From: Thermococcus guaymasensis DSM 11113
GTDB taxonomy: Archaea; Methanobacteriota_B; Thermococci; Thermococcales; Thermococcaceae
Direction of reading: 5' to 3'
Assembly (NCBI RefSeq): GCF_000816105.1
Contig: NZ_CP007140.1
Span: 1,638,388 to 1,702,387, forward strand
DNA length: 64,000 nucleotides
Positions 1,859 through 53,930 of this stretch are shown here, piece by piece (the first letter of the stretch is position 1; every line of letters starts with the position of its first letter). The translations under genes were made by a program, and so were the position numbers. The notes under the pieces were generated by a model. It was not told where the DNA came from. It saw only the letters and a list, made by a program, of their open reading frames with translations, and ran no database searches.

Positions 1859-1980
1859 GGCTTCATCCCTATGAATGTTTCTCTTCAGATGCTTAAAAAG
1901 TTTTTGGCAAATACCCGATAAAACGCCGAGGGTTTTTTGAAAAAACTCCAGCTTCTCCACTAATCTGTCGGAAAATCCTT

Positions 1981-2142
1981 GGTGTGGGCCGGGCACAGAG
2001 GCCCGCGCTCATTCGTTCACGCGGGTGGATGCTCCCGGCCCTGTGGGCTCGGCGTGAGCACGCTCCGTTCATTGAACCCGACCACCTCACGGAGGCGGGA
2101 AAACCGAGCCCGTGCGAGGGGTCCTGTCCCCTCGCTGTCGGC
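1981..2142 (-). ncRNA. Double-hairpin H/ACA guide RNA (candidate)
   Basis: On the minus strand two hairpins each end directly at an ACA. Hairpin A: lower stem 1986-1993/2034-2041 (8 bp), pocket strands 1994-2001 and 2026-2033, upper stem 2002-2007/2020-2025, ACA at 1983-1985. Hairpin B: lower stem 2045-2052/2104-2111 (8 bp), upper stem about 2062-2067/2089-2094, ACA at 2042-2044. Both apical parts carry GUGA...AUGA, the sheared-GA signature of the archaeal K-turn/K-loop bound by L7Ae. The distance from pocket top to ACA in A is 16 nt. A third plain hairpin (2114-2121/2128-2135) lies at the 5' end. A TATA-like element at 2163-2173 is correctly placed for a start near 2142. The role would be rRNA pseudouridylation with Cbf5-Nop10-Gar1-L7Ae. 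Confidence 0.72.
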
Positions 2143-50761: not shown

Positions 50762-51478
50762 TCAGAGGTTTTCTTTCATCAATATGCCGTATTTTTCATA
50801 CTTCTCCTTTATTCCAAGGTTTTTAAGGGTATACCACATTGAGGCCTGGTTGCTCGTCACAACGGGAATTCCTAAATCACTCTCAAGTTTGTCTATGATT
50901 TCAATCGTTCTGAAGTTTGTACAGCTGATGAAAAGACCATCTGCCTCTGGAGAATAGACATCCAGCGCCAGCCTGTAGGCCACCTCCGGGGGCTGTTTTC
51001 CGATCTCGGTGTTTTGAACTATTCCAAGCCCCTTGATTGCAAGGACATCGAGGCCATTGTCCTCAAGGAACTGCTTTTCCTTCTCGTTGACCGAGTCTAT
51101 ATACGGCGTTGCAACCACAACTTTGCTTATTCCGAGTGTCTTTAAAGCCTCGAGAACGGCGGTTGATGTCGTTATGGCCTTTATTCCCGACGCCTCTTCG
51201 AGCTCTTTCGCTATTTGCCGGTCGTAACCCTTGCCCTTCACCAAGCTCCCCGAGGTGCAGCCGTACATGATTATGTTCACTGCGGCGTCCGCCAACCTTT
51301 TTGCGGCGTCTTTTGCATAACTCTCCATATCAACCAGAGCCTCTTCGGTAACGACTCTCAGATTCATCCTGGCCGCGTGCACCGAAACTCCCTCTGGAGC
51401 CATCTTCCAGAATTCTGGCTCCATGGTGGTGTTGGATGATGGAACAATCAGTCCAATCCTCCTTCTCCATCCGTACAT
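50762..51478 (-). CDS. Maleate isomerase/Asp-Glu racemase family protein
   Basis: 238 residues. The two catalytic cysteine regions are YGCTSGS and ISCTNFRT, the pair used by maleate cis-trans isomerase, arylmalonate decarboxylase and amino acid racemases. [13 protein letters not shown] is the N-terminal substrate loop of the maleate isomerase subgroup. In this operon a racemase acting on glutamate or 5-oxoproline is possible, but the sequence alone favours the maleate isomerase-like group. Confidence 0.82.
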
Positions 51479-51514
51479 TGCCTACCCTCCAAAAATTTGT
51501 AAAACAGGAAAGGC

Positions 51515-52765
51515 TCACATTAGCCCCAAAGCCTTGAGGATGAGTCTAATTCCCAAAATTGTTGCTGTAACGACTGCAATACCGCCGAGCACGTTGCTAA
51601 TCGGGCCGTTTGTATATTCTCCGAGGTATTCCTTCTTGTTTGCGGCGTAGAGAAGCATCCAAGCAACTATTGGCAGGAGGACACCGTTAACGGCCTGGGC
51701 AAAGATTATTGCCTCGATCGGTGATCTACCAGTTGCGAACACCATGGTGCCGAATCCAAGGCCCGCGAGCATTATGAGAATAAGCCACGTCCTAAAGTGC
51801 TTGTCTTTCATATCCCTTGGCAAGCCAAGAGACTGCTGAATCGCATATGCTCCGGCCAGAGGGGCCGTTACTGCAGAGCTCATGCCTGCTCCGAATAAAC
51901 CAATGGCAAAGAAAGCGGCGGCTGCCCTGCCCAAGAGGGGCTCCAGCTGGACGGCCATGTCCCCGGCGGATTTTACAATTATTCCCTTAGGGTGAAGAAC
52001 GGCGGCGGCCGTTATCATAATAGCCCAGCTGAAGATTCCTCCAAGGAGAACTCCTATTATAGTGTCCCAGCGCATTATTTTTATGCCCACTCTTCCTTTC
52101 CATCCCTTTTCAAGAACTGATGATGAGTGCAGGAACAGATTGTAAGGCACCACAGTCGTTCCGATTAAGGCCAGCACTATCGTGAGTGCACCCTCGGGAA
52201 TAGTGGGCTTTACGAGGTGAACTGCCACCTGTCCCCAGTCCGGCTTTGCGACGAACATATCAACCAGGAAGGCAAATCCCATCACTGCAACTAAAGCCGT
52301 TAGGAACTTTTCGATCACCTTATAGCTCCCGGTCCATAGCAGTATCGTTGCTATGATTCCAATAACCCACAGCCACAGGATGGGGGAACTCCCCAGTATT
52401 GTGTTCAAACCGATGGCAGCACCGGTGAGGTTTCCGGTTTGAAACGCCGCGTTGCCGACGCCTATTGCCAGAACTACTAAGGCCGCCGCAATCTTGTTCA
52501 CGGTCGGGTTCTTTGAGAGGCTTGTCCTGATGAACTCAGCTAAGGGCTTACCAGTTGCAATTGCAATCCTTGCGGACATTTCCTGCAGCACGATCGTTGC
52601 AAACACTGAAAAGGTTAGTGCCCACAGGAGCACGTAGCCGTATTTGGCGCCGGAAGAAGACGTCGTTGTAACGGTTCCCGGGCCGACGAAGGCAGCAGTG
52701 ACGATCAACCCGGGGCCGAGGGCTTTTAGTATATCCTTCCAACTTACGTCCTTCTCTTCCGCCAT
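51515..52765 (-). CDS. NRAMP-related transporter (YcsG-like) of the 5-oxoprolinase operon
   Basis: 416 residues, about eleven membrane helices. It has the NRAMP fold, but the first-helix metal motif DPGN reads VGPGTVTTTSSSG here, without the metal-binding aspartate, and the sixth-helix MPH motif reads VVPYNLFLHSSS. Related NRAMP-like genes (YcsG) sit with the ycsF-kip genes in Bacillus. This suggests an organic substrate such as 5-oxoproline, not a divalent metal. The ATG at 52765 follows GGTGGTTGGA. First gene of the operon. Confidence 0.82.
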   Translation of the reverse strand: MAEEKDVSWKDILKALGPGLIVTAAFVGPGTVTTTSSSGAKYGYVLLWALTFSVFATIVLQEMSARIAIATGKPLAEFIRTSLSKNPTVNKIAAALVVLAIGVGNAAFQTGNLTGAAIGLNTILGSSPILWLWVIGIIATILLWTGSYKVIEKFLTALVAVMGFAFLVDMFVAKPDWGQVAVHLVKPTIPEGALTIVLALIGTTVVPYNLFLHSSSVLEKGWKGRVGIKIMRWDTIIGVLLGGIFSWAIMITAAAVLHPKGIIVKSAGDMAVQLEPLLGRAAAAFFAIGLFGAGMSSAVTAPLAGAYAIQQSLGLPRDMKDKHFRTWLILIMLAGLGFGTMVFATGRSPIEAIIFAQAVNGVLLPIVAWMLLYAANKKEYLGEYTNGPISNVLGGIAVVTATILGIRLILKALGLM

Positions 52766-52816
52766 TCCAACCACCCGGTTTCCATTTGGCCGGTGTCAGA
52801 GGTTTTCGTCATACAC

Positions 52817-53018: not shown

Positions 53019-53412
53019 ATGCAGGTAATAGACACTGCCATCTTCATCCAGGGGATGGATGTCGAGGGGGTTACGACGCCGAAGGTCGTTGAGGAGGTTA
53101 AAGACCCGGAGTCCCGGCTCTTTTTGGAGGGACTGATAAGCGCAGGGAAGGTGAAGGTTCTCGTTCCCTCCCGGGAGAGCGTTGAGGCCGTTAAAGAGGC
53201 CGCCCGGAAAACAGGGGACGAACATAGCCAGAACCCTCGGGATTCCCTTCAAAACGCTCAAGCGTGGAATTAAGCGCGTGATACGCTGGAACTACGTTTG
53301 CATCGGCTGTGGAAAGAAGTTCTCCGAAATGCCGCCCGACGGGATATGCCCCGACTGTGGCAGTCCGGTGAGGCTGCTGCCGAAAAGAAAGAGGCGTCAG
53401 AGGCGGAGGTAG
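53019..53412 (+). pseudogene. nob1: nob1 with an internal deletion and frameshift
   Basis: The first frame (53019-53273) codes a PIN-domain N-terminus (VIDTAIFIQGMD... KTGD) identical in style to archaeal Nob1, the 16S rRNA 3'-end nuclease. The C-terminal Nob1 part, with [20 protein letters not shown] and the CIGC...CPDCG zinc ribbon, continues in another frame from about 53222 to 53412. About 67 plus 63 residues remain; the missing middle (about 30 residues in intact proteins of about 160) normally carries two of the catalytic aspartates. As read, no full enzyme is made. A sequencing or assembly error must be excluded. Confidence 0.8.
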
Positions 53413-53930
53413 GGGATTATCTCATCGTAGGCCTCGCTCCAGTCAACAAGGCCGACGCGCTTCTTGACCCCCTTCTCAATCAGCCCCAGAATCTCATCCA
53501 CGACTTCTTCGGGCGTCTTTCCAGTCGTGTCTACCTCTATGACGTTCTCGTTCTCCTCAAGCGCTTCCACGAGGATGACATCGACAAGCTCGGCCTCGAC
53601 GTTCTCGCCGACCTTTTCCCGCGAATAGCCCCTCTCCTTCAGCCTCTCGCCGATTAGCCTCGGATGCGCTCGCAGAACGACCACGAGGTCCGCCGGCAGG
53701 AAATGGCTCAGATGGCCGTCAACGACGATGTCCTTTCCTTTGAAGTCCCGCTCGAAGTTGTAGACAAGCTCATCTACCTCGACTTCAAGCTCCTCGCCTT
53801 TCATCTCGCCTATGCCCTTCTCAAGCGCGTAGTCTCTTAAGTTGACGTACTCATAGCCGAGTTTTTCCACCAAAAGCTTTGAAACCGTCGTCTTTCCCAC
53901 CCCGGGCGTTCCAGTTACGGCTATTATCAT
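53397..53930 (-). CDS. Adenylate kinase AK6/Fap7-type
   Basis: 177 residues. The P-loop is GTPGVGKTT at residues 7-15, followed by [35 protein letters not shown] and an [10 protein letters not shown] tail, the AK6/Fap7 layout. The family is an atypical adenylate kinase that works with ribosomal protein S11/S14 in small-subunit maturation. It converges with the nob1 locus with a 16-base overlap; both act in the same step of 30S assembly. Confidence 0.88.

What the first reader, a model, noticed from the sequence alone, without database searches (positions are those of the whole stretch)
53019..53412. nob1 is broken by an internal deletion
N-terminal PIN part and C-terminal zinc ribbon are in different frames. 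About 30 residues with two catalytic aspartates seem missing at about 53218-53222. Nob1 makes the 16S 3' end and is normally kept, so a second copy, a replacement nuclease, or an error in the sequence is implied. The convergent neighbour is the Fap7-like kinase of the same pathway.
Basis: partly seen in the sequence, partly recalled or inferred. Interest (0 to 1): 0.72.

Follow-up and report, generated by a model that had tools for sequence, protein, structure and literature searches.

The report
Freshly broken nob1, probably sequence artefact
In this Thermococcus assembly the only gene for Nob1, the nuclease thought to trim the end of the small ribosomal RNA, has lost 89 bases and its reading frame, but the remains show no decay at all, so this is most likely an error of the assembly or a brand-new lesion rather than an organism that has evolved to live without Nob1.

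Summary
nob1 (53019-53412) consists of a PIN half (53019-53219) and a zinc-ribbon half (53221-53412) in different frames. Compared with relatives, 89 bases net are missing at the junction (about 30 residues, including Asp75, Asp92 and Asp93; Asp75 and Asp93 align to human and yeast Nob1). No aligned relative lacks this segment. All 65 other near-complete genomes searched in the phylum have an essentially full-length PIN match. The single-contig 1.92 Mb genome holds no second nob1 and no displaced copy of the missing piece.

All 129 retained residues occur in relatives, dN/dS against the nearest relative is about 0.06, and the 16S 3' end, Fap7 and the Dim2/Pno1-like protein are intact. The lesion is therefore younger than roughly 2-3% of this species' branch. 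The assembly is otherwise clean: of 302 shared genes in 800 kb, nob1 is the only real break.

Most likely this is a local misjoin in the assembly or a variant of the sequenced culture (0.65); a real, very recent loss comes next (0.28). Neither can be separated without reads. Separately, a 2.3 kb AMDase-Nramp pair has replaced the usual nob1/pxpA intergenic region here.

The parts
53019..53219 (+). nob1 5' part: codons 1-67, first part of the PIN domain, with the first active-site Asp (D5) kept
   Evidence: PIN_6 match; PDB 2lcq match; all residues occur in relatives
53217..53222 (+). deletion junction: 89 bases net missing relative to relatives, with one base not explained by a simple deletion (about 90 out, 1 in)
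   Evidence: alignments; relatives' positions
53221..53412 (+). nob1 3' part: end of the PIN domain, zinc ribbon (CxxC...CxxC) and basic tail, in a different frame from the 5' part
   Evidence: ORF 53182-53412; Nob1-type family NF009146 positions 98-161; profile match
53397..53930 (-). intact convergent Fap7/AK6-like kinase gene; its 3' end overlaps the nob1 3' end by 16 bases
   Evidence: 177 of 177 residues match PDB 4cvn; frame intact against G006
50762..52774 (-). AMDase/Asp-Glu-racemase-like gene (50762-51478) and Nramp transporter gene (51515-52774) placed between pxpA and nob1; in most relatives these two are divergent and about 60-70 bases apart
   Evidence: Pfam; gene order in relatives

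Best explanation
This is the single nob1 gene of a Thermococcus, hit by one very recent indel (about 90 bases out, 1 in) that removes the PIN segment with Asp75 and Asp92/93 and shifts the frame of the zinc ribbon. As written it cannot give an active nuclease. The most likely cause is the record and not evolution: a local misjoin in assembly or gap closing, or a variant present only in the sequenced culture, while the species itself keeps a working Nob1. Shown: the lesion, its uniqueness, no second copy, no decay, otherwise intact genes and an unchanged 16S 3' end. Inferred: that the true chromosome carries the missing bases.
For: Zero of 129 retained residues are unique to this genome, against up to 12 in intact relatives; dN 0.052 and dS 0.88 to the nearest relative. 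All 65 other near-complete genomes of the phylum keep the domain. There is no second copy. The partners Fap7 and the Dim2/Pno1-like KH protein, and the 16S 3' end with its flank, are unchanged, so nothing in the pathway has adjusted. No short repeat at the junction suggests a simple slippage deletion.
Against: The assembly looks good: one contig, 99.7% complete, and nob1 is the only true frame break among 302 shared genes or about 90,000 codons in 800 kb, so it is not an error-ridden record. A clean loss of 89 bases is not a typical base-calling error. The ancestral upstream region of nob1 has also been replaced here, which shows real rearrangement nearby.
Confidence: 0.65

Rival explanations
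1. The deletion is real and fixed in the sequenced strain: Nob1 was lost very recently, and the cells survive with an unprocessed or differently trimmed 16S 3' end or with a weak backup nuclease already present.
For: The surrounding assembly is accurate. The upstream region has been rebuilt by an insertion. The gene is a mosaic of two sequence types that switch near the junction, as a faulty recombination event might leave. Archaeal evidence for Nob1 at the 16S 3' end is described as in vitro (PMC8339473, PMC11602121).
Against: The gene is kept in all 65 other near-complete genomes of the phylum. The lack of any decay forces the loss into about the last 2-3% of the branch. There is no sign of compensation in the 16S end or in the partner genes.
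Confidence: 0.28
2. Nob1 was replaced by another nuclease (for example one of the other PIN proteins) and nob1 is a relic.
For: Other PIN-domain proteins exist, at G000 1160489-1160932 (148 aa) and in a 602-residue PIN protein at about 460606.
Against: An old relic would have decayed, and this one has not. The 148-residue PIN protein is patchy in the genus and occurs beside intact nob1 in other species. No protein in the genome resembles the missing Nob1 segment beyond generic PIN similarity.
Confidence: 0.03
3. The two halves are expressed as separate polypeptides, or joined by frameshifting, and still act together, for instance as a non-catalytic ribosome-binding factor.
For: Both halves keep open frames and conserved residues. 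In human NOB1 the zinc ribbon, not the PIN active site, is needed for stable binding to pre-40S particles (PMC6380343).
Against: The missing 30 residues hold two conserved acidic positions and part of the domain core, and the C-terminal half has only an out-of-frame TTG start inside the N-terminal half. Frame conservation is explained equally well by recency.
Confidence: 0.04

Closest known systems
Archaeal Nob1 (Pyrococcus horikoshii, PDB 2lcq; T. kodakarensis TK0337; Pfam PF17146 PIN_6, NCBIfam NF009146)
   Same: Both halves align along their length to Nob1 of other Thermococcales; the D5 motif, the zinc-ribbon cysteines and the basic tail are present; the fap7 neighbour is as in the closest relatives.
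   Different: Residues 68-97 with D75, D92 and D93 are missing, and the two halves are in different frames.
Recent pseudogenes and assembly indels in otherwise finished genomes
   Same: One isolated frame-breaking indel with no other decay.
   Different: It hits a gene present in every near-complete relative searched, which is unusual for a tolerated recent pseudogene.

Membership tests
Nob1 (archaeal 16S 3'-end endonuclease) | N-terminal PIN domain of the PIN_6 type | tested here: not met
   Only the first 69-71 of 87 profile positions are present; every other near-complete relative reaches position 86 or 87
Nob1 (archaeal 16S 3'-end endonuclease) | PIN acidic residues at D5, D75 and D93 | tested here: not met
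   D5 is kept; D75, D92 and D93 lie in the missing segment
Nob1 (archaeal 16S 3'-end endonuclease) | C-terminal zinc ribbon with two CxxC motifs in the same reading frame as the PIN domain | tested here: not met
   The zinc ribbon is present and conserved but in another frame
Nob1 (archaeal 16S 3'-end endonuclease) | Cleaves pre-16S rRNA at the mature 3' end | not testable with these tools
   Needs RNA from cells; the cleavage-site sequence itself is unchanged
Decayed (old) pseudogene | Relaxed selection: extra substitutions, stops and indels beyond the first lesion | tested here: not met
   0 of 129 residues unique, dN/dS about 0.06, one lesion only
Fap7/AK6-type kinase (convergent neighbour) | Full-length match to archaeal Fap7-type kinase | tested here: met
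   Residues 1-177 match PDB 4cvn at E 6.7e-86 and NF003012 over the cut-off

The most novel reading that the evidence does not exclude
The deletion is real: a growing Thermococcus lives without catalytic Nob1, so final 16S 3'-end trimming in archaea can be skipped or done by another nuclease.
Probability: 0.28. Interest if true: 0.7.

Novelty: new member of a known kind. Interest (0 to 1): 0.27.

Why it matters
If the deletion is real, the strain would be a natural Nob1-null archaeon and would allow a direct test of whether Nob1 is needed for 16S 3'-end formation in cells, which the papers read here describe as shown in vitro only. If it is an error, it is a correction to a reference genome, and a warning against reading gene loss from one assembly.

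Tried and rejected
Second nob1 copy: three searches of the own genome found only the two halves. Displaced missing segment: not found; the remaining weak hits are other PIN proteins or zinc ribbons. Replacement by the 148-aa PIN protein: patchy, and it coexists with intact nob1 elsewhere. Noisy assembly: rejected by the frame survey; in the first passes several candidate breaks appeared, but inspection showed antisense ORFs, start-site or C-terminal differences, or intact genes, and the final survey left nob1 alone, the four other flags having antisense-like compositions. Repeat-mediated deletion: no repeat at the junction. Changed 16S 3' end: none. Bacterial-type promoter/terminator scan gave nothing useful for an archaeon. 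Papers: no report of a broken or absent nob1 in Thermococcus was found.

Full report
What was checked. The window is G000:C1:1638388-1702387 of a single-contig, 1,920,914-base genome that is 99.74% complete. The relatives with named records are Thermococcus and Thermococcaceae, and the nearest held genome, G006, is about 90% identical over the nob1 downstream region. From memory the genome size suggests T. guaymasensis DSM 11113, but this was not confirmed.

The observation. nob1 starts at 53019 and its last stop is at 53412. The first 67 codons match the PIN_6 family but stop at profile position 69-71 of 87. The zinc-ribbon half is open in another frame and matches positions 98-161 of the 162-position archaeal family NF009146. 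An alignment with nine relatives shows exactly 89 columns missing in this genome. The missing residues are 68-97, including D75, D92 and D93, which are invariant in the six relatives aligned. D75 and D93 align to equivalent acidic residues in the human and yeast Nob1 chains. All proteins read from relatives carry this segment. One detail can be added: every relative inspected has a Glu codon (GAG/GAA) where this genome has GAC at the junction, so the event is better described as about 90 bases lost and one gained; no repeat at the junction explains it.

Is it unique? Within the genus, 56 of the 60 other genomes have the domain, essentially complete (one match starts at position 15 but its frame is a full 161 aa), and the four without a match are incomplete assemblies. 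Across near-complete genomes of the phylum, 65 of 65 others have it. This genome is the only truncated one.

Is there another copy? No. The family search, a search with a six-sequence Nob1 profile at E up to 10 and a partial-protein search found only the two halves. The weak remaining hits are a VapC-like PIN protein, a 602-residue PIN protein and zinc ribbons. The VapC-like protein occurs in only some of the relatives searched, beside intact nob1, so it is not a special replacement.

How old is the lesion? None of the 129 retained residues is unique to this genome; each is seen in at least one relative, while intact relatives carry up to 12 unique residues. Against G006, dN is 0.052 and dS 0.88, and mismatches fall on third positions in both halves. 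If about half of dS lies on this branch (inference), a neutral gene would have gathered of the order of 120 non-synonymous changes over the whole branch; seeing no unique residue limits the neutral period to roughly 2-3% of it. This bound is approximate, because changes to residues also seen in relatives would not be counted. The lesion is thus essentially new, whatever its cause.

Has anything else adjusted? The single 16S gene found has the same 3' end and first spacer bases as four relatives. The convergent Fap7-like kinase is intact and matches PDB 4cvn end to end. The Dim2/Pno1-like KH protein (arCOG04150) is intact. Nothing suggests a rebuilt 3'-end pathway.

Is the assembly noisy? As a control, 800 kb of this genome was compared with 1.2 Mb of G006. 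Of 302 coding genes (about 90,000 codons), five were flagged. Four are short ORFs whose serine/arginine-rich translations look antisense, and only nob1 is a real break. Earlier passes with looser filters gave more flags, which on inspection were antisense ORFs, different start sites, or natural C-terminal differences. The record is therefore not error-prone in general. This argues against a flood of base-calling errors but does not exclude a single gap-closing misjoin.

Surroundings. In most relatives nob1 and pxpA are divergent with about 60-70 bases between them (shared upstream sequence). Here 2.26 kb with an AMDase/racemase-like gene and an Nramp gene lie between them, so nob1 has lost its ancestral upstream region. 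Left of the junction nob1 resembles G006/G039, and right of it G009/G007. These facts show that the locus has really recombined in the past and keep a real deletion in play.

Mechanism and verdict. As written, the locus can give only an 84-residue PIN fragment and possibly a separate zinc-ribbon peptide; neither can form the PIN active site (inference from the missing conserved residues). In human cells a NOB1 with one catalytic Asp changed causes pre-18S rRNA to accumulate (PMC6380343). The archaeal role at the 16S 3' end is described as shown in vitro (PMC8339473, PMC11602121), and purified T. kodakarensis Nob1 (TK0337) is an active nuclease (PMC8788744). I found no paper stating whether Nob1 is essential in archaea. 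The most likely reading is an assembly misjoin or culture-level variant (0.65), then a real, very recent loss (0.28). An evolved replacement (0.03) or a functional split protein (0.04) is unlikely. Reads or one PCR would decide.

Noticed in passing
window 50762-52774 (-): An AMDase/Asp-Glu-racemase-like gene and an Nramp transporter gene sit between pxpA and nob1, where most Thermococcus have about 60-70 bases; G033 has an AMDase-like gene in the same slot in opposite orientation.
   Followed up: partly
window 53024-53349: nob1 is a mosaic: stretches alternate between G006/G039-like and G009/G007-like bases, with a switch near the deletion junction.
   Followed up: partly
window 53397-53412: The 3' ends of nob1 and the Fap7-like kinase gene overlap by 16 bases on opposite strands.
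   Followed up: no
window 1972-2142 (-): HgcF (Pab35) H/ACA-type guide RNA, 148.8 bits.
   Followed up: no
G000:C1:1160489-1160932 (-): A VapC-like PIN protein with patchy distribution in the genus, near two genes that look like the GMP synthase subunits.
   Followed up: partly
G048:C4 and G048:C57: This draft relative carries two nob1 matches on different contigs, perhaps from contamination.
   Followed up: no
PDB entry 2lcq: The structure that matches archaeal Nob1 end to end is labelled 'Putative toxin VapC6' in the database, which can mislead annotation of this gene.
   Followed up: no
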